A stretch of DNA of 13,034 nucleotides, from the NCBI GenBank assembly GCA_001871235.1, contig MNUV01000058.1, forward strand, positions 3,257 to 16,290, in the 5' to 3' direction. This document shows, piece by piece, positions 5,960 to 12,747 of this stretch. Source of the DNA: Candidatus Falkowbacteria bacterium CG1_02_41_21. GTDB taxonomy: Bacteria; Patescibacteriota; Patescibacteriia; Patescibacteriales; UBA12465. Position 1 is the stretch's first letter. Each line of letters opens with the position of its first letter. Position numbers and translations under genes: made by a program. The notes under the pieces are model-generated. The model saw nothing but the letters and a program-made list of their open reading frames with translations. It did no database searches and was not told where the DNA came from.

Positions 5960-6871
5960 ATGTTTTTATCTCTGATTCGGATTATCAAATTTAGCTTGCA
6001 GGATATCAGCCGCAATGTCTGGCTGACTATCGCTACCGTCACTATTCTAGTTTTGGCCCTGCTTTCGGTCAATACGCTTTTAACCGTGGATGTTTTAAGC
6101 CGCCATGCCATTGACGCCGTCAAAGAGAAGATTGATATCAGCTTATATTTGAAAGCGGATGCCAGCGAAGAACAAGTGACGAGTCTCAAAACTGAAATTT
6201 CCCAAATGAGCAAGGTGAAGCAAGTGATGTACACTTCCAAGGCCGATGCTTTGAGGTCTTTTCGGGAAACGAATGCGGATAATCCGGAAGTTTTAGCGGC
6301 CCTCAGAGAGTTGGGCCGAAATCCTTTGTCTCCGAGTTTAATTATTGTACCCAATAACGTGGAAGAGGCGCCTCAACTTATCAATGAAGTTAAACAAATT
6401 GACAGCGATATTATTGAATCTCGTGATTTTACGGATAATACTTTGATCCTAGATAAGATCAATGATATTACCAAAAAGATTAGCGAGGTCGGATTATTTA
6501 TTATTTGTATTTTTCTCTTTACCAGCATGTTGGTCGCTTATAATTCCATCAAAGTCGCTATTTATACTCATCGCCGGGAAATTGAAATTATGAGACTGGT
6601 GGGCGCTTCCAATAGCTTTATTTATTTACCGTTTGTCTTGTCGGCGGTTATTTATGCTTTCTTGAGCGTAATGTTGATTATCATTTTATTCTATCCGTTC
6701 TTGGGCATCCTCCAACCTTATTTGGAAGTTTTCTTTATGGATTATAATATTAATATTATCGATTATTTCCTTAATAACTTTATTATTATCTTCGGTCTGC
6801 AGTTTTTGGTCGTTTCCATTATCAGCGTCTTGTCTTCTTGGTTGGCCATCAGAAGATATGCTAAAGTCTAG
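5960..6871 (+). CDS. ftsX: Cell-division protein FtsX (ABC permease-like)
   Basis: 303 residues with FtsX topology: cytoplasmic N-terminus, first membrane helix about 21-43, a large external domain about 44-170, then three more helices near 172-196, 220-245 and 272-297. The REIEIMRLVGAS segment after helix 2 is the conserved cytoplasmic coupling loop of this family. It transmits ATP cycles of FtsE to cell-wall hydrolases outside the membrane. It is encoded 10 bases after ftsE on the same transcript. No clear terminator follows; a weak 6-bp hairpin with a G-T pair and short T run lies at 6931-6952, inside the leader of the tRNA-Gln transcript. Confidence 0.92.
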   Translation: MFLSLIRIIKFSLQDISRNVWLTIATVTILVLALLSVNTLLTVDVLSRHAIDAVKEKIDISLYLKADASEEQVTSLKTEISQMSKVKQVMYTSKADALRSFRETNADNPEVLAALRELGRNPLSPSLIIVPNNVEEAPQLINEVKQIDSDIIESRDFTDNTLILDKINDITKKISEVGLFIICIFLFTSMLVAYNSIKVAIYTHRREIEIMRLVGASNSFIYLPFVLSAVIYAFLSVMLIIILFYPFLGILQPYLEVFFMDYNINIIDYFLNNFIIIFGLQFLVVSIISVLSSWLAIRRYAKV

Positions 6872-6896
6872 GTTTTTAAGGGCCAAAAATTAATCC

Positions 6897-6925
6897 TTGA
6901 CGTTATAGATGTGATTTTGTATTAT
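6897..6925 (+). promoter_or_regulatory. Promoter of tRNA-Gln
   Basis: TTGACG (6897-6902), 17-bp spacer, TATTAT (6920-6925): five of six consensus bases in each box at ideal spacing. The predicted start near 6932 is about 27 bases before the mature tRNA 5' end. Confidence 0.7.
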
Positions 6926-6958
6926 ATAGGAGCTGATTAATCGTCGGCTTTTATTTAT

Positions 6959-7032
6959 TCGGGGATCGTCTAATGGTAGGACAGCGCCCTTTGAAGGCGT
7001 CGATCGGGGTTCGAGTCCCTGTCTCCGAGCCA
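6959..7032 (+). tRNA. tRNA-Gln(UUG)
   Basis: Cloverleaf by eye: acceptor TCGGGGA (6959-6965) / TCTCCGA (7022-7028) with one G-T pair; D stem GTC/GAC; anticodon stem GCGCC/GGCGT with loop CTTTGAA, anticodon TTG; T stem CGGGG/CCCTG with standard loop TTCGAGT; discriminator G as usual for Gln; CCA encoded at 7030-7032. The recombinase frame on the other strand runs into this gene to 6970, so the tRNA marks the probable integration site of the island. Confidence 0.95.
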
Positions 7033-8628
7033 ACGTAGATTAAGCGAGGTTAAAGCCTCGCTTTTTCTGTAATATAAGCCGATTTTCAACGGTTCTAACT
7101 TGGCCAATTCAGCGTTAAATTTTTCTACGTTCTCAAAGAGCGGTAAAAGCCATTCGTGATAAGAAATACTAATGTTTTTATGTATTATTGTTTGGTTCGA
7201 GCCTAATCTATTTATCGTTTCTTTTCGCTTGTTTTTATCACCCTCGGCAAATTCTTTGTTAGCATGAGCACAGAAGATAAAATTATCTTTAGTTAATTCA
7301 ATTAGCTCGCTTTGAAATTTGGGTTGCTTTTCCGGCTTTACATTTTTTAGATTATTAATATCTTTTTCCAGATCAGCCAGCTGGTTGGAAAAAGTGCTAT
7401 CGTTAATTAATTTTTTCGCTCGCATTTTAACTAATTCGTTTTTCTCGGTTTCCAAATTAATGATTTTATCTTTTTGATTATCAACGATAATTTTTTCAAC
7501 TTCATTATTTTCAGTTTTCTTTTTGTCTAAATGCTCCAATGCCCAATTTAAAAAGAGTGGGTGAATTTCAAATTTTTTCAGTTCCGACTTAACTTGTTTT
7601 TCCAATTCGTTTTGTTCCACCGAACCCTCTTGGCAATTAGCTGATTTTTTCTTATGGGTGCAGTGATAATAACTATAGCTTCGGACTTCATTTTTGCTTT
7701 TAATATATTTGGTTTTTCTTTCCGCCGTTATTGAACAACCACAAATACCGCACTTAAATATTCCGGAGTAGGGAAAATCATGTTTTTGCGGTTTCTTTTT
7801 ACAACCCCTCAAACCTAATAATTCTTGAATCCGATTAAACTCGTCTAGGGTTATAATTGGTTTATGTTTGCCCGGACTTTCTTTGCTGTTATAGGTAATT
7901 ACTCCGGCATAGAACGGATTAGATAGCATTTTATACCACACGCTCCGAGATAATGGCCGGCCACCCATTTTAGGTTTTTGGCGAGATATATATCCCCAGT
8001 CATTATTCAGTTTATTAAGCACTTCTTGAGCGTTATATGATCCGCTTAAAAATAGCTCAAAAGCTTTTCTCAAAAGTGGAGCTCTCTTTTTATCGGTAAT
8101 AAGTGTTCTTTGGCCTTTCTCGAGCCTGACATCGTTAATATAGCCCTCAGGAGCCACACCAGGGAGCCACCCTAAAGACACTTTCTTTTCTAAACCACGT
8201 TTAACATCTTTACCTAATTTTGAAGAAAAATATTGCGATTGCGACAGAGCTAATTGCAACATCATTATACCCTCGGGGCTGTTATCAAGATTATAGGAGG
8301 CAAATTTTAAGTCATAGATAACGCCAGTCCTAACCATATAAGTAATGGTTGAGGCGTCTATTTCATTTCTGGATAATCTGTCGGGATGCCAGGCAATTAT
8401 ACCTTGAGCCTCGCCTTTTCGAATTCGTTTAATCATTTTTTCAAACTCTGGCCGGTTATATGGTTTAAAGGCACTATGCCTTTCTTCAAAATAATCTACG
8501 ATTTCCAGACCACTAAAAAATTCTTTAACCTTATCCTTTTGGCTTTCAATAGATAAGGCTTGGCGTTCTTCGCCCTCGGTGGATTTGCGGACATAAGCGA
8601 AATATTTAATTTTATTTTCTGTTTCCAT
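6970..8628 (-). CDS. Large serine recombinase (resolvase/integrase family)
   Basis: A 552-residue site-specific DNA recombinase. The N-terminal resolvase domain (about 7-150) has YVRKST with nucleophile Ser16, IESQ near 27-30 and HPDRLSRN with Arg84 and Arg87. The recombinase domain follows (about 155-280), then a zinc ribbon near 290-335 (CGIC plus a later CTH...NC pair), then a charged coiled coil about 370-430. This layout matches integrases that insert and excise elements. The last 20 residues (from Trp, encoded opposite the tRNA CCA) are antisense tRNA-Gln sequence, ending RALSYH, so they are shaped by the tRNA and not by recombinase function. The stop lies at 6970-6972 inside the D arm of the tRNA. 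The start ATG has an AT-rich upstream stretch and no Shine-Dalgarno. A structured leader with its own promoter precedes it. Confidence 0.92.
   Translation of the reverse strand: METENKIKYFAYVRKSTEGEERQALSIESQKDKVKEFFSGLEIVDYFEERHSAFKPYNRPEFEKMIKRIRKGEAQGIIAWHPDRLSRNEIDASTITYMVRTGVIYDLKFASYNLDNSPEGIMMLQLALSQSQYFSSKLGKDVKRGLEKKVSLGWLPGVAPEGYINDVRLEKGQRTLITDKKRAPLLRKAFELFLSGSYNAQEVLNKLNNDWGYISRQKPKMGGRPLSRSVWYKMLSNPFYAGVITYNSKESPGKHKPIITLDEFNRIQELLGLRGCKKKPQKHDFPYSGIFKCGICGCSITAERKTKYIKSKNEVRSYSYYHCTHKKKSANCQEGSVEQNELEKQVKSELKKFEIHPLFLNWALEHLDKKKTENNEVEKIIVDNQKDKIINLETEKNELVKMRAKKLINDSTFSNQLADLEKDINNLKNVKPEKQPKFQSELIELTKDNFIFCAHANKEFAEGDKNKRKETINRLGSNQTIIHKNISISYHEWLLPLFENVEKFNAELAKLEPLKIGLYYRKSEALTSLNLRWLGDRDSNPDRRLQRALSYH
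7043..7066 (+). terminator. Rho-independent terminator of tRNA-Gln
   Basis: AGCGAGG (7043-7049) pairs with CCTCGCT (7056-7062) around TTAAAG and is followed by a T tract (7062-7066), 10 bases past the tRNA CCA end. The same bases read antisense as codons near the end of the recombinase frame. Confidence 0.8.
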
Positions 8629-8777
8629 ATTTTATATTAATTTTTTTAGATAACAAAAAGGGGCGGTCCTAAGGCTCCAACAGAATATCGCCAAAAGCAA
8701 TACTCGTCGGTAGAACCGTCCCTTTTTGAGGGCGAGTATAAAAAAAGCTTTTGACACTTATTATTCTATTGGAGCCT
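8629..8777 (-). promoter_or_regulatory. Structured leader of the recombinase gene with two competing hairpins
   Basis: Read on the - strand, the RNA would start near 8777. Three nested helices are possible: P1 8777-8762 with 8687-8672 (16 pairs, one G-U), P2 8753-8747 with 8698-8692 (7 pairs) and P3 8739-8733 with 8706-8700 (7 pairs). The 26-nt loop of P3 contains 8728-8711, which can instead pair with 8671-8654 directly downstream of P1 (17 of 18 positions pair, one as G-U). That second helix has a GC core and ends in CCCCTTTTTG, like an intrinsic terminator, 25 bases before the ATG. The pairings cross, and the short connecting loop cannot span P1-P3, so they should be mutually exclusive. 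An attenuator is the simplest reading; a DNA site for recombinase binding is the alternative. Confidence 0.6.
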
Positions 8778-8783
8778 AATTAC

Positions 8784-8811
8784 ATAATAACACGGTCGTT
8801 TATTTTTTCAA
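8784..8811 (-). promoter_or_regulatory. Promoter of the recombinase leader
   Basis: On the - strand: TTGAAA (8811-8806), 16-bp spacer, TATTAT (8789-8784) with TGT in front (extended -10). The predicted start falls near 8777, exactly the outer end of helix P1. The -35 box overlaps the 3' end of the upstream 60-residue gene. Confidence 0.6.
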
Positions 8812-8982
8812 GGCACCGTAGTATTTTTGGTGCTGGGCCCTGGTCATTGGTTTATACGTTAAATCAATGAGCCACAACAAATCCGAGGCCTGTTTATAGG
8901 CTTCGGTTCTAGTCAATTTCTTTTTGTATGTTTTCTCATATAATTCCATAAAACTGGTAATGTCGTTAGCGGTTAAGGTCAT
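8800..8982 (-). CDS. Small conserved-looking protein upstream of the recombinase (unknown function)
   Basis: 60 residues, mostly predicted helix: an acidic first half (DITSFMELYEK), a TRTEAYKQASDLLWLIDL middle and a basic end. It resembles, from memory, short proteins often seen beside serine recombinases in CPR elements with a pattern of the type EFxxLY-K-ExxxxEA; I cannot name a family. It is co-oriented with the recombinase, ends 23 bases upstream of the predicted RNA start of the recombinase leader, and has no cysteines or transmembrane stretch. A role as a recombination accessory or small regulator is possible but unproven. Confidence 0.6.
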   Translation of the reverse strand: MTLTANDITSFMELYEKTYKKKLTRTEAYKQASDLLWLIDLTYKPMTRAQHQKYYGALKK

Positions 8983-9024
8983 ATAGTTCGCTAAATCACC
9001 ATGTTTTACATCAAAGGTTTTTTT

Positions 9025-9063
9025 AAATAGCCAATATTTAACCCTACCAATTTCTGGCTATTT
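9025..9063. repeat. 9-bp inverted repeat between the two small genes
   Basis: AAATAGCCA (9025-9033) and TGGCTATTT (9055-9063), perfect, 21-bp spacer, lying between the stop of the 100-residue gene and the start of the 60-residue gene. No T tract follows on the - strand, so it is not a standard terminator for the upstream gene; an operator or message-stability hairpin is possible. Confidence 0.45.
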
Positions 9064-9071
9064 GAACGGTT

Positions 9072-9374
9072 TTAAAGCGACTGATTTTGGTGGACGACTA
9101 AGTTATCGACTTTGGCAGAATAAACTTTTAAAACAAATGGTTGGGTTTGTTTTTGGTTGTCCTCAGGCTTTTTTGTCAGCCTCTCGTGAAAGGCCATAAT
9201 TTCTTTTTTATCTTTTTTGGCATAATCGTTTTTATCAACTAATTTATTGAATCCTCTGGCGATAGTTTGACGACTAAAGTTTTGACCGATTATTGTCATG
9301 GCAAAACAAATACTGGTGCTAATCCCTGAATTTTTGTAATTAATTTTATTAAAACGTCTGGCGATTGATTTCAT
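9072..9374 (-). CDS. Small basic mobile-element protein (unknown function)
   Basis: 100 residues, strongly basic. The N-terminal 70 residues contain RFNKI, SICFAMTIIGQNFSRQTIARGFNKLVDK and DDKNDYAK-like elements that I recall from short CPR proteins found in mobile elements, where a similar CFA...G..FSR....FNKLV pattern recurs; I know no function for them. A helix-turn-helix-like DNA-binding fold would fit the spacing but is not demonstrated. The last 25 residues look less constrained. It is the first gene of the - strand cluster leading to the recombinase and is preceded by an operator-like inverted repeat at 9418-9456. Confidence 0.6.
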   Translation of the reverse strand: MKSIARRFNKINYKNSGISTSICFAMTIIGQNFSRQTIARGFNKLVDKNDYAKKDKKEIMAFHERLTKKPEDNQKQTQPFVLKVYSAKVDNLVVHQNQSL

Positions 9375-9417
9375 ATTATTTATTTAGGTTTTTATTAATG
9401 TTTTTTAAAATTCTCCC

Positions 9418-9456
9418 GGTGTGTGCGTATAGTCAAGTTTATATAAAGCACACACC
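9418..9456. promoter_or_regulatory. Operator-like inverted repeat around promoter elements
   Basis: Perfect 9-bp arms GGTGTGTGC (9418-9426) and GCACACACC (9448-9456). The spacer holds the palindrome TTTATATAAA (9438-9447) and, on the - strand, TTGACT (9436-9431). The arms thus bracket possible -10 or -35 boxes about 45-80 bases before the 100-residue gene. This is the layout of a repressor site, although no well-spaced pair of boxes can be fixed. Confidence 0.45.
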
Positions 9457-9485
9457 CTAGACAGATCTTATTTAAAATCTCATTT

Positions 9486-9568
9486 ACCGCCCCGACTTGT
9501 TTTTCTTTTTTCGGCGAGCGGACAAGCCTCGCCGAAAAAAATAGAAATAACAATGTTCGGGGGCGGTT
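9486..9568. repeat. Long imperfect palindrome in the divergent region
   Basis: The core is a perfect 13-bp stem TTTTTTCGGCGAG (9506-9518) / CTCGCCGAAAAAA (9528-9540) with a 9-nt loop. Outer arms continue the pairing with small bulges: ACCGCCCCGA (9486-9495) against TCGGGGGCGGT (9557-9567), with T/A-rich pairing between. T's precede and A's follow the core on both strands, so neither strand gives the U-tail of an intrinsic terminator. A protein-binding site, a replication or transfer origin hairpin, or a structured RNA are open options. Confidence 0.6.
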
Positions 9569-9616
9569 AAAAAAGAGATAGTTAAGAGAAAGACAACCTA
9601 ATTAACAGGGATAAAG

Positions 9617-9711
9617 CTATTAATAGGTTAAGACGAAATTAACACGTCTTTGCCAAAACAAAAAAACCGAGCACGGAAAAAATACTGGTTAATGAATTAA
9701 ATTGGCAAAGA
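9617..9711. repeat. Cluster of short inverted repeats
   Basis: Within about 95 bases: the 10-bp palindrome CTATTAATAG (9617-9626), a small hairpin AGACG/CGTCT (9631-9635, 9645-9649), and a perfect 10-bp inverted repeat TCTTTGCCAA (9647-9656) / TTGGCAAAGA (9702-9711). No open frame of note covers them. Their density suggests protein-binding sites in the gene-free region, but some would arise by chance in AT-rich DNA. Confidence 0.35.
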
Positions 9712-9955
9712 ATGGACTTTGCTAATTTACAGGGGATATTATTTTATGAGTTTGAAATTTTTATTTTACGTTTCATGCAAGCGACATCCGTTTAACAGTG
9801 GGTCCCGAGGTTATATATTTTTATTTTAATTAGTCCGTAGAGTATTATAGCATAAATTTGGGGTTAGGTTAAGAGCCGATTTTTCGAGTGATTTTTGGGA
9901 TTTTGACGAGGCCGTCTGATTGTGGCTGATTGGGCTGGGGATAAGTTTTTTTGGT

Positions 9956-9984
9956 TTGACTTTTGGCCTATTAAAAGCTAAAAT
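9956..9984 (+). promoter_or_regulatory. Promoter of the DUF5655 nuclease-like gene
   Basis: TTGACT (9956-9961), 17-bp spacer, TAAAAT (9979-9984): five of six consensus bases in each box. The predicted start near 9991 leaves about 25 bases before the ATG at 10016, which supports that ATG as the original start of the frameshifted gene. Confidence 0.6.
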
Positions 9985-10015
9985 TATCTTATAAAATGAC
10001 TTTAAATTTAAACTT

Positions 10016-10923
10016 ATGGCCCTATTTAAAATAAATGGCAATGATGTTAAAAAATAGTTGTTAAAAGCGTTGATCTTGAAAGACAATTGCAGAGATTATT
10101 TGAGGGGAATTTAGAGGAAATACTAAATATCACCTTTTTAGCGAGTGAATATTCAACTAGCAGTGGCGGAAGAATGGACACACTAGGAATAGATAAAAAT
10201 GGTGCCCCGGTTATTATTGAATTCAAAAAGAGCCAAAATGAAAATATCATTAATCAGGGCCTGTCTTATTTGCGTTGGCTTTTAGACCACAAAGGTAATT
10301 TTGAAATTTTGTGCAAAAATAAAAATGTTGACGTTGATATAGATTGGGATTCGCCTCGTGTTATTTGTATTGCTGAAAGCTATAATAAATTTGATATTGA
10401 TACCGTGGATATATTGCCAATTAATATTGAACTTTATAGATACAGAATTTATAATGAAAATATTTTATATTTGGAGCCGGAAAATTATCAGAAAGTTAGA
10501 ATTTCTACGTCTGGAATAATCAAAAAAAGCAATAAAGAAAAAACCGAGGTTTTGCAAAAAGATTATTCTGTAGATCAGCACTTAGAAATAGCTAGCGAAG
10601 ATATTAAGTCATTATTCCTAACCTTAAGAGAAAAAATCACAGCATTAGACGAGGATGTTGTTGAGGAGGCTAAAGCAAAATATATCGCTTATAAACTTTC
10701 AACTAATTTTGCCGATGTCGTCATTCTTCATAACTCGCTAAAAATATTTGTTAATGTAAAAAGCGGAAAATTAAATGATCCGGATAATATTGCTCGTGAT
10801 TTAGAGAAACCTAAGCATATCGGCCACTGGGGCAATGGTGATTATGAAATTAAGCTAGAGCACCAAAAAGATTTAGAAAAGGTTTTTAATTTAATTAAAC
10901 AAAGCTTTGACTTTAATAAGTAA
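10016..10923 (+). CDS. DUF5655 / PD-(D/E)XK nuclease-like protein, apparent frameshift near start
   Basis: Two domains are visible. The N-terminal half has a nuclease-type core with GGRMDTLG (Asp) followed by PVIIEFKKSQN (Glu-x-Lys), as in NucS-like and other PD-(D/E)XK enzymes. The C-terminal part (about the last 110 residues, from LFLTLREKI to LIKQSFDF) matches my memory of DUF5655. ATG 10016 opens MALFKINGNDVKK and then hits TAG at 10055. The frame one base over continues IVVKSVDLERQLQRLFEGNL, so adding one A to the A6 run at 10049-10054 restores the usual family N-terminus. As it stands, only TTG 10087 opens the main frame (278 residues), with both the nuclease motif and DUF5655 intact. 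It could be a sequencing error, RNA-polymerase slippage, or a real mutation. It sits just before the restriction-modification pair, suggesting a defence or DNA-repair role. Confidence 0.75.
10049..10054 (+). other. A6 run at the apparent frameshift
   Basis: Six A's between GTT and TAG. With seven, the reading MALFKINGNDVKK would pass into IVVKSVDLERQL without a stop. With six, the 5' frame ends after 13 codons. Homopolymer A runs are known sites both of base-calling error and of transcriptional slippage. Confidence 0.65.
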
Positions 10924-10976
10924 ATTTATCTTTATCAAAATTTTAACTATTTTTTAAATAAATTTCATCACTCATT

Positions 10977-10985
10977 TGCTATAAT
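10977..10985 (+). promoter_or_regulatory. Extended -10 box directly before the methyltransferase frame
   Basis: TG-C-TATAAT (TATAAT 10980-10985) is a perfect extended -10, but the first ATG of the methyltransferase frame begins at the very next base. RNA made from it would start near 10992 and lack that ATG; the next in-frame ATG is 11034. No good -35 box is visible. Confidence 0.5.
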
Positions 10986-11822
10986 ATGACTGAATCTAAA
11001 AAGGCGAAGAAGAAAATAAAAAAAGACAAAAAAATGATTACCCCATATTTCAAACATAAGGACTTTGAATTATTCAAGGCTAACAGTCTTGAGTTTTTGG
11101 CTACGCTAAAAGAAAATTCAGTCGATATGATTTTCGCTGATCCACCTTACTTACTTTCTAGCGGTGGCTTTACTTGCGATGGCGGTAAAATGGTCAGTGT
11201 TAATAAAGGGCAGTGGGATGTTAGCAACGGTCTAAAGAAAGATTTTGAGTTTCATTTGGCTTGGACTCAAGCTTGTCATAGGGTTTTAAAACCGGGTGGC
11301 ACTCTTTGGGTTAGTGGAACTTATCACTCAATTTACCAATGCGGATTTGCTTTACAGGTTAATAAATTTCATATTTTAAACGATATTGCTTGGTTTAAGC
11401 CAAATGCTTCACCGAATTTAAGTTGTCGTTTTTTCACTGCTAGTCATGAAACTTTAATTTGGGCTAGAAAAGATAAAAAAGGAAAGCACAAATTCAATTA
11501 TGATTTAATGAAAAATGGCAATTGGCCAGAAGATTTTTTGAAAAAGCCTAATTTACAAATGAGAAGTGTTTGGTCTATGGGCACGCCAAAACCATCAGAA
11601 AAAAAACATGGTAAACACCCAACTCAAAAACCAATCGATCTATTGGTCCGTATTGTTATGGCTAGCACCGATAAGGGCGATTTAGTCATTGATCCATTTA
11701 CTGGATCGTCAACGACTGGATTAGCCTGTGCTCTTAATGGCCGAAAATTTATTGGTATTGATTTGGAGAAAAAATACTTAGATTTATCAATAAAAAGATA
11801 TAAAGATTTAGATATTAAATAA
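10986..11822 (+). CDS. DpnA-like (beta-class) adenine-N6 DNA methyltransferase, GATC type
   Basis: Transfers methyl from S-adenosylmethionine to DNA, protecting it from the partner endonuclease. Motif IV DPPY (residues 52-55) precedes motif I DPFTGSSTTG (236-245), the beta-class order. The whole length resembles pneumococcal DpnA (M2.DpnII): MIFADPPYLLSSGG, PNLSCRFFTASHETLIWARK, GKHPTQKP. The target adenine in GATC is inferred from that likeness and the DpnII-family neighbour. From 10986 the frame adds a lysine-rich 16-residue head; ATG 11034 (residue 17, MITPYF) aligns well with the DpnA start and would suit RNA from the -10 box at 10980-10985. I give the longer frame because T precedes its ATG, as at most starts here, and cotranscription with the gene upstream would allow it. 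The endonuclease starts 4 bases after the stop. The alpha-class DpnM partner is absent. Confidence 0.9.
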   Translation: MTESKKAKKKIKKDKKMITPYFKHKDFELFKANSLEFLATLKENSVDMIFADPPYLLSSGGFTCDGGKMVSVNKGQWDVSNGLKKDFEFHLAWTQACHRVLKPGGTLWVSGTYHSIYQCGFALQVNKFHILNDIAWFKPNASPNLSCRFFTASHETLIWARKDKKGKHKFNYDLMKNGNWPEDFLKKPNLQMRSVWSMGTPKPSEKKHGKHPTQKPIDLLVRIVMASTDKGDLVIDPFTGSSTTGLACALNGRKFIGIDLEKKYLDLSIKRYKDLDIK

Positions 11823-11826
11823 TTCT

Positions 11827-12747
11827 ATGAAATTTTTAAATTTCTATAAAGAAACTTTAGGATGTAAAAGCGAGGATGATGTTTTTGCCTATTTCCTAAA
11901 TAATTTAAAACCGAGCAATATGTTTTGGTCTTATTTTGTGAATTGGGAAAAAGTTTTTGAAAATACCAGAAAAATAGAAATTGCTTTAAATAATCTTAAT
12001 TATTTAATTGGCAAAAAAGACTTTGACAAAGAGTTTAAATTTTTAGTTAAACAAAACCCCGAAATTATTAAAGTTATTCCTGCTTTAGCCGTGAGAGACG
12101 GTAGCAATAATAATAAATTTCAAATTCTCGTTGATTATAAGAGTAAAAAATTAGTTTATGAGGAATACGACTTTTCTAAAAAAGAAACAACCGATGAAGA
12201 CATCGAAAAATATTTGTTATTCGTAAAAGAAACCGGTCTTAAAGATTTGATAATTTCGCAAAAGATTAAAAATTTGGTTGATTATATGATCGGTGTTGAG
12301 GCCGGGCTAGATAGCAACGGTCGTAAAAACAGAGGCGGACATTCCATGGAGGATATTGTCGGTTTCTTTATAGCTGATATTTGTAAGACTAAAGGCTTTA
12401 AATATCTGAAAGAGGCAACTGCGGAAAAGATAAAGAGCGAATGGGGCTTTGACGTTCCAGTAGATAAATCATCTAGGCGATATGATTATGTTGTTAACAC
12501 CGGCAAAGAACTTATTATTTTTGAAACTAATTTTTATGGTGGCGGAGGATCAAAATTAAAATCAACCGCTGGTGAATACAGAGATTTATTTAATGTTTTA
12601 GGCGGAAAATATAAATTTATTTGGATTACTGACGGCAATGGTTGGAAAACAACCGCTAGGCCACTACGGGAAACTTTTAATCATAATGATTACATTTTTA
12701 GTTTGGATATGATTGAAAAGGGAGTATTAAATAATCTTTTTAAATAA
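11827..12747 (+). CDS. DpnII/MboI-family type II restriction endonuclease (GATC)
   Basis: 306 residues, close to the usual length of the family. The C-terminal half carries the family signature: GRKNRGGHSMEDIVGFF, then SRRYDYVV with Asp220, IIFETNFYGGGGSKLKS with Glu233-Thr-Asn235, then GEYRDL and WITDGNGW. The Asp...Glu-x-Asn set is the probable metal and catalytic centre, a PD-(D/E)XK variant. Such enzymes cut unmethylated GATC in front of the G. The reading frame is intact and no key residue looks lost, so the enzyme is probably active. It follows the methyltransferase by 4 bases, so production of toxin and antidote is coupled, with the protective enzyme made first. GATC sites occur inside both genes. 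Confidence 0.9.
   Translation: MKFLNFYKETLGCKSEDDVFAYFLNNLKPSNMFWSYFVNWEKVFENTRKIEIALNNLNYLIGKKDFDKEFKFLVKQNPEIIKVIPALAVRDGSNNNKFQILVDYKSKKLVYEEYDFSKKETTDEDIEKYLLFVKETGLKDLIISQKIKNLVDYMIGVEAGLDSNGRKNRGGHSMEDIVGFFIADICKTKGFKYLKEATAEKIKSEWGFDVPVDKSSRRYDYVVNTGKELIIFETNFYGGGGSKLKSTAGEYRDLFNVLGGKYKFIWITDGNGWKTTARPLRETFNHNDYIFSLDMIEKGVLNNLFK

What the first reader, a model, noticed from the sequence alone, without database searches (positions are those of the whole stretch)
8629..8811. Recombinase leader with two mutually exclusive long hairpins and a terminator-like end
Seen: three nested helices (P1 16 pairs, P2 7, P3 7) whose loop contains an 18-base segment (8728-8711) that can instead pair with the segment directly downstream of P1 (8671-8654) and end in a T5 tract just before the recombinase ATG. 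The promoter's predicted start falls on the first base of P1. Inferred: a transcription attenuator or riboregulator setting recombinase level, possibly sensing a ligand, protein or transcription speed. The alternative is a palindromic DNA site bound by the recombinase itself (autoregulation or part of an att site). I know of no described attenuator of this shape in front of large serine recombinases.
Basis: partly seen in the sequence, partly recalled or inferred. Interest (0 to 1): 0.75.

Follow-up and report, generated by a model that had tools for sequence, protein, structure and literature searches.

The report
RNA switch before Patescibacteria recombinase genes
The mRNA of a DNA-integration enzyme in a mobile element of an ultrasmall bacterium begins with an RNA that can fold in two competing ways, one of them looking like a transcription stop signal; the same RNA recurs before distantly related integration enzymes, and no published description of it was found.

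Summary
The leader (minus strand 8777-8651) folds as P1-P2-P3 (8811-8629: -49.8 kcal/mol, z -4.57), and loop segment 8728-8711 is complementary to 8671-8654. A covariance model finds 37 copies in 36 of 379 genomes of the window's phylum; 36 of the 37 lie upstream of a serine recombinase on the same strand, down to about 25% protein identity. In 43 aligned leaders all 33 nested pairs have compensatory changes (alignment fitted to that structure); the loop-to-3' pairing, not in the model, has them at 13 of 18 pairs and occurs in 64 of 64 leaders. Forcing it reveals a complete second hairpin (T1+T2+T3) that uses the 3' strands of P1-P3, so the folds are exclusive: -48.4 against -45.2 in the window. 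A U-run of 3 or more follows in 62 of 64; the -10 box ends 6 nt before P1 in 38 of 63. Best reading: a terminator/antiterminator attenuator. Termination, signal and effect are inferred. No Rfam match.

The parts
8784..8811 (-). Promoter-like site: -35 TTGAAA, 16-nt spacer, -10 TATTAT with TG before it; the hexamer ends 6 nt before P1
   Evidence: motif alone is no evidence: 20 found in 6800-10200, 10.4 expected; a 6-nt distance recurs in 38 of 63 leaders
8762..8777 (-). P1 5' strand; predicted first bases of the transcript
   Evidence: covariation
8747..8756 (-). P2 5' strand
   Evidence: covariation
8733..8739 (-). P3 5' strand
   Evidence: covariation
8720..8732 (-). P4 apical hairpin (8732-8729 with 8723-8720); its 3' strand is part of the T1 5' arm
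8708..8718 (-). P5 apical hairpin (8718-8715 with 8711-8708); overlaps the T1 5' arm
8711..8728 (-).
8706..8710 (-). T2 5' strand CCGAC
8696..8705 (-). T3 5' strand (overlaps the 3' strands of P3 and P2)
8700..8706 (-). P3 3' strand
8689..8698 (-). P2 3' strand
8683..8692 (-). T3 3' strand (overlaps the 3' strands of P2 and P1)
8677..8681 (-). T2 3' strand GUUGG (inside the P1 3' strand)
8672..8687 (-). P1 3' strand
8654..8671 (-). T1 3' arm with the T5 tract 8659-8655: terminator-like 3' end
6970..8628 (-). Serine recombinase, 552 aa: Resolvase, Recombinase, zinc-ribbon domains
6959..7032 (+). tRNA-Gln(TTG) antisense to the recombinase 3' end: likely integration site
   Evidence: same arrangement in relatives

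Best explanation
A cis-acting transcription attenuator of the recombinase gene. Transcription starts at the first base of P1. As RNA emerges, P3, P2 and P1 zip up in turn (fold A, antiterminator), with P4/P5 holding the 5' arm of T1. While A is intact, polymerase passes the T tract and the recombinase is made. If something keeps the 5' strands from pairing, or loosens A, the 3' half folds instead into one long hairpin, T1+T2+T3, ending in the U tract, and transcription stops before the start codon. Shown by sequence analysis: conservation and covariation of A and of T1, a statistical co-evolution signal for T2/T3, the conserved promoter position, the U tract, and linkage to serine recombinases. 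Inferred: actual transcription and termination, which state prevails in the cell, and the signal. My guess for the signal is the recombinase or another element-encoded factor, because the leader stays with recombinases of different kinds of element.
For: 43 leaders: 33 of 33 nested pairs change on both sides, 473 such cells against 134 in shuffles, 94.6% paired against at most 44.6% when slid (this alignment was fitted to that structure). T1, not in the model: 13 of 18 pairs change on both sides, 47 cells against 13.5; score above all of 20 shuffles in 64 of 64; own arms -25.05 against -15.49 for permuted partners, z -20.8. T2/T3: enclosed stretch z median -2.49, 39 of 64 below -2; own halves -7.63 against -6.11 permuted, z -6.9, and z -4.3 in the 41 more distant leaders. 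In the T1 pairs facing the U tract the 3' base stays mostly U while the 5' base is A or G (for example AU 18, GU 13), as selection on a U tract predicts. U run of 3 or more in 62 of 64, 4 or more in 51 of 64. -10 to P1 distance of 6-7 nt in 40 of 63 against at most 17 in shuffles. By lowest energy, fold A is complete before the T1 3' arm in 63 of 64 and still lowest at the arm's end in 58 of 64.
Against: No transcript ends were seen; no RNA data were used. U runs of only 3 in 11 leaders and none in two, so termination may be weak in some lineages. T2/T3 is weak in the L052-type group (z +0.4 to -1.5) and absent or weak in L075, L120 and L125 (z +0.4, +0.6, -0.4); own T2/T3 halves beat the median foreign partner in only 47 of 64. 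The fold with T1 forced is a median 6.0 kcal/mol above the lowest fold and within 5 in only 28 of 64, so A might never yield. T1 could instead pair as a pseudoknot with A intact; covariation cannot tell. In the 15 close leaders T1 has only 4 of 18 pairs with a change on both sides and 8 that never vary. Three relatives at 59% identity lack the full leader (L025-L027), so it is dispensable.
Confidence: 0.6

Rival explanations
1. Translation or stability control: transcription always reads through, and the folded leader (A, T, or A plus T1 as a pseudoknot) hides or frees the start region and guards the 5' end.
For: In 13 of 64 leaders an ATG lies within 6 nt of the U run, for example L030, L033, L035, L058, L066 at 2-3 nt (in L030 it starts a small ORF before the recombinase). 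P1 and the T1 3' arm abut with 0 nt between them in 43 of 64. The U tract is short in several lineages.
Against: In the window the ATG is 26 nt from the U run; the U tract has a strand bias that a plain helix would not need; L050 has about 225 nt between leader and the recombinase ORF.
Confidence: 0.18
2. A trans-acting RNA: the short terminated leader is the functional product, a stable RNA of about 125 nt that pairs with or binds the recombinase or leaders of other elements, as an immunity RNA of the phage P4 type does (recalled comparison).
For: Predicted blunt paired 5' end and hairpin 3' end; leader found with recombinases of only about 25% identity; elements found in one assembly have different T1 arms (L021/L022, L036/L037, L035/L050, L023/L062; records, arms).
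Against: In 36 of 37 genome matches it stands before a recombinase gene. Arms also differ between unrelated elements, so the co-resident difference has no control. T1 arms are used within the same RNA.
Confidence: 0.1
3. A DNA site: a palindrome bound by the recombinase (operator or part of an att site), or a single-strand origin or packaging hairpin of filamentous phage.
For: 20 of the 43 A5 leaders have a filamentous-phage-type Rep in the DNA held upstream; Pfam REP_ORF2-G2P or Zot in the three such elements tested. P1 keeps a partly constant sequence (by eye).
Against: The leader also occurs where that Rep was not found, for example beside a D5-type primase (L074); the tRNA-type integration site is at the other end of the gene; G-U 136 against A-C 32 (the model's scoring favours G-U somewhat); promoter-like site in fixed register with P1. 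P1 constancy can be explained by its double use in T2.
Confidence: 0.06
4. A guide RNA that directs the recombinase to its target, as the bridge RNA of IS110 elements does (recalled).
For: Tight linkage of RNA and recombinase; the integration sites are diverse tRNA genes.
Against: L024 (tRNA-Asn) and L032 (tRNA-Gln) share the same T1 arm, while six tRNA-Gln(TTG) elements (window, L020, L022, L023, L032, L050) have different arms; L025 sits at tRNA-Gln with only a 53-nt remnant of the leader.
Confidence: 0.02

Closest known systems
Terminator/antiterminator attenuators and transcriptional riboswitches (general class, recalled)
   Same: Two exclusive folds, one ending in a GC-rich hairpin and U tract before the gene
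   Different: Gene class (serine recombinase of mobile elements), very long antiterminator starting at the predicted +1, apical P4/P5 holding the terminator arm, no known ligand; a leader peptide was not searched for beyond reading the sequence
STAXI and Lacto-int motifs (PMC2864571; passages and table lines seen)
   Same: Structured RNA candidates near integrase or DNA-manipulation genes of mobile elements
   Different: STAXI is a repeated small pseudoknot; Lacto-int is listed for Lactobacillales and phages. Lacto-int shows no Rfam number in the line I saw and was not compared here
Phage P4-type immunity RNA and c4 antisense RNA (recalled; c4 is in the list)
   Same: RNA-controlled premature termination in a mobile element leader
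   Different: No separate antisense segment or processing shown; stands before a recombinase; no Rfam match
Large serine integrases of phages, Ccr and XisF recombinases
   Same: The protein's domains and matches below cut-off to NCBIfam XisF, CcrB and CcrC
   Different: Eight distant recombinase loci (of 438 phage and 59 plasmid records matched) and four from Acidobacteriota or Armatimonadota bins have no such leader (best E 0.062)

Membership tests
Transcription attenuator | Two mutually exclusive conserved folds in the leader | tested here: met
   T2/T3 weak in the L052-type group and three other leaders
Transcription attenuator | GC-rich hairpin followed by a U tract before the coding sequence | tested here: met
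   U run >= 3 in 62 of 64, >= 4 in 51 of 64
Transcription attenuator | Leader is transcribed from a promoter upstream of both folds | tested here: inconclusive
   Promoter-like motif in fixed register; no transcript mapped
Transcription attenuator | Condition-dependent termination | not testable with these tools
   Needs in vitro transcription or RNA data
Riboswitch | Ligand-binding pocket of conserved unpaired bases and a known ligand | not tested
   No ligand candidate; no test for a conserved unpaired core was made
T-box or any Rfam family | Score of the family's covariance model | tested here: not met
   No leader match at E <= 1 in the window or in 8 diverse loci
IS110-type guide (bridge) RNA | RNA segments change with the target site | tested here: not met
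   Same arm with different tRNA targets, different arms with the same target
Recombinase DNA-binding site | Constant sequence, substitutions symmetric between strands | tested here: not met
   16 of 16 P1 pairs vary on both sides in A5; GU 136, AC 32. Binding itself was not tested
Serine recombinase (downstream gene) | Resolvase, Recombinase and zinc-ribbon domains | tested here: met
   All three above cut-off

The most novel reading that the evidence does not exclude
The short leader RNA is itself a mobile-element regulator acting in trans: made all the time from the integrated element, it forces termination in the recombinase leaders of related incoming or co-resident elements, an RNA-based integration-immunity system spread through the Patescibacteria, with T1/T2 arm variation setting specificity.
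Probability: 0.1. Interest if true: 0.85.

Novelty: new variant of a known kind. Interest (0 to 1): 0.62.

Why it matters
It is an apparently undescribed structured RNA family, about 127 nt, present in roughly one in ten of the sampled genomes of the phylum (36 of 379) and tied to serine recombinases of filamentous-phage-like and other elements. It would be RNA control over a large serine recombinase, it gives a concrete testable switch in a phylum for which riboswitches have been named as promising expression tools (passage of PMC11665869), and the covariance model can be used to find such elements.

Tried and rejected
Pseudoknot-only view: at first I took T1 as a pseudoknot on an intact P1-P3, because the arms do not overlap it; one search showed a full nested alternative, so the pseudoknot stays only as a rival. 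A fold-back geometry test (P1 length tracking P2+P3 length) gave the opposite sign (rho -0.29) and is dropped. Guide RNA: rejected. Link to phage replication: rejected, since the leader occurs where no Rep was found, with the limit that several loci hold 1.5 kb or less upstream. A script count of the wobble position in T1 (last table) picked wrong positions and is not used; the wobble rests, column 63/121 (GU 6, GC 2, AU 1, not paired 6; at least five of the latter are A-C by eye). The P4 search was permissive: in about nine rows it found another hairpin than CCC/GGG; the sum is still 529.5 against 384.5 +/- 14.9 (maximum 433). In one search one of five measures, further pair types, did not exceed the shuffles (173 of 500 as high). 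Model searches over hundreds of genomes used stricter filters that lose weak matches. Searching other phyla with the model failed (the option needs a genome handle). Literature: nine searches showed no such leader in the rows listed; most lists were capped, and the library holds open-licence papers only. Of the papers opened I saw only passages. Dropped rows before the counts on 64: one antisense match (L030 minus), one double (L127 = L131 plus), and two identical leaders (L031, L124). L071, L073 and L079 were not given to because L111, L113 and L123 are the same places.

Full report
What is there. The minus strand of 8811-8629 holds a promoter-like site, a 127-nt structured leader (8777-8651) and, next to it, the start of a 552-aa serine recombinase (8628-6970; Resolvase, Recombinase and zinc-ribbon domains). 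The stretch 8811-8629 folds at -49.8 kcal/mol, z -4.57, none of 200 shuffles as good. P1 is 8777-8762/8687-8672, P2 8756-8747/8698-8689, P3 8739-8733/8706-8700, with small hairpins P4 and P5 in the P3 loop.

Relatives. A pattern scan of genome contigs with the recombinase gave 45 loci and of viral contigs two; the named ones of highest identity are Patescibacteria, from which I infer the window's phylum. Printing the upstream DNA showed the leader in most of them with different letters and the same pairing. Model R1, built on 15 leaders (the window and 14 of these loci) with only P1-P3 as structure, finds the leader in 31 of these 47 loci and the window; the 14 match by construction. Of the 16 others, three (L028, L034, L051) have under 200 nt of upstream DNA; L025 keeps a 53-nt remnant; in L026, L027, L045, L047, L049, L054, L055, L059, L060, L061, L063 and L064 neither model finds one.

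Linkage. Model R2 (43 leaders) searched in 379 genomes of the same phylum gives 37 matches in 36 genomes at E <= 0.01. No protein information is in the model, though 13 of the 43 training leaders come from this panel or the window. By, 36 of the 37 have a serine recombinase downstream on the same strand: 32 within about 0.15 kb, one (L078) at about 0.47 kb, three (L132-L134) about 0.83 kb away with room for another gene (their recombinases confirmed by Pfam). One (G238:C4:16719-16859, plus strand of L131) has none close by; its next plus-strand ORF of 90 aa or more is a helix-turn-helix gene. The recombinases range down to about 25% identity to the window's. Conversely, 17 of the 29 top recombinase loci given to R2 have the leader at E <= 0.001; four of the 17 lie in genomes whose leader was in R2's training set. 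Twelve recombinase loci outside the phylum, eight from phages or plasmids and four from Acidobacteriota or Armatimonadota bins, have none (best E 0.062). One leader (L046) comes from a bin labelled Dependentiae; I cannot tell whether it is misbinned.

Covariation. On 15 close leaders 23 of 51 pairs change on both sides, 94.8% of cells pair, shuffles give 12.9 pairs; T1 alone has 4 of 18 such pairs and 8 that never vary. On 43 leaders all 33 nested pairs change on both sides; 473 cells against 134; slid controls pair at 30-45%. That alignment was fitted to P1-P3, so it leans towards it. T1 was not in the model: 13 of 18 pairs change on both sides, 88.5% paired, best slid control 59.6%. T1 is found in 64 of 64 distinct leaders, 10-21 pairs long, always better than 20 shuffles of the 3' end.

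The second fold. When T1 is forced, the 39 nt it encloses in the window fold into T2 (CCGAC/GUUGG) and T3 (10 pairs), energy -17.0, z -5.5. These use the 3' strands of P3, P2 and P1, so the long hairpin T1+T2+T3 and fold A cannot both exist. Energies in the window are -48.4 (A) and -45.2 (T1 forced); over 64 leaders the median gap is 6.0 kcal/mol, 28 are within 5, and in 9 the lowest fold already contains at least half of T1. The enclosed stretch has a median z of -2.49, below -2 in 39 of 64. Own halves pair better than permuted ones, -7.63 against -6.11 (z -6.9), still z -4.3 among the 41 more distant leaders; own beats the median foreign partner in 47 of 64; reversing the second half gives -5.37. 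This control does not remove all effects of relatedness. The double use of GUUGG in P1 and T2 would explain why P1 keeps a partly constant sequence. T2/T3 is weak in the L052-type group and in L075, L120 and L125.

RNA rather than DNA. The -10 hexamer ends 6 nt before P1 in 38 of 63 leaders and 6-7 nt in 40; shuffled upstream DNA gives at most 17 for any two adjacent distances. So the transcript should begin at or next to the first base of P1. G-U pairs outnumber A-C mismatches 136 to 32. A U run of at least 3 follows in 62 of 64 and of at least 4 in 51 of 64. In the T1 pairs facing that run the 3' base stays mostly U while the 5' base varies between A and G, which points to selection on the U tract itself. 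Against a strong terminator in every lineage: 11 leaders have only U3, and two (L120, L128) have no run of three.

Order of folding. Lowest-energy folds of growing transcripts show A complete before the T1 3' arm in 63 of 64 and still lowest when the arm is out in 58 of 64. This is equilibrium folding by length, not kinetics. It suggests that read-through is the default and that termination needs A to be disturbed. What disturbs it is unknown.

Setting. In 22 of 26 loci scanned a tRNA gene lies antisense at the recombinase 3' end (Gln, Asn, Ser, Asp, Trp); in the window it is tRNA-Gln 6959-7032. The last residues of the window's protein are read from the antisense strand of that tRNA. In 20 of the 43 A5 leaders a filamentous-phage-type Rep lies in the DNA held upstream; Pfam finds REP_ORF2-G2P and Zot in L065, REP_ORF2-G2P in L041 and Zot in L030, and a D5-type protein instead in L074. 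Filamentous phages with serine recombinases, and with hosts in the candidate phyla radiation, are known (passages of PMC6813254). The 13-kb window has no such Rep. So the leader seems to follow the recombinase, not the replication module.

Known or new. Rfam 15 has no match at E <= 1 in the leader. The nine literature searches named in Tried and rejected listed no paper on such a leader; lists were capped and the library holds open-licence papers only, so this is not proof. The kind of device, a terminator/antiterminator attenuator, is long known; the RNA family, its host group and its gene are new to me.

Noticed in passing
window 6959-7032 (+) and 6970-8628 (-); loci: Serine recombinase ORFs end inside tRNA genes read antisense, with many different tRNA targets (22 of 26 loci scanned), so the C-terminal tail depends on the integration site.
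   Followed up: partly
L048:2134-2377 (-): A group I intron (Rfam 95.4 bits) directly follows the recombinase 3' end, where other loci have the target tRNA; perhaps an intron-bearing tRNA target.
   Followed up: no
L131:5720-5860 (+): One copy of the leader without a recombinase close by; the next plus-strand ORF of 90 aa or more is a helix-turn-helix gene, in a genome with a second, recombinase-linked copy.
   Followed up: partly
L050, about 557-783: About 225 nt, seemingly flanked by an inverted repeat (by eye), lie between leader and recombinase ORF.
   Followed up: no
window 10087-12747: DpnII-type restriction endonuclease with an N6/N4 methyltransferase, and a DUF5655 protein before them, perhaps cargo of the element.
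   Followed up: no
window 8800-8982 (-): Small ORF just upstream of the promoter with look-alikes at the same place in other loci (by eye); no Pfam match.
   Followed up: no
A2 column 63/121 (T1): A T1 pair that is mostly G-U or A-C and rarely Watson-Crick, as if a wobble were kept.
   Followed up: partly
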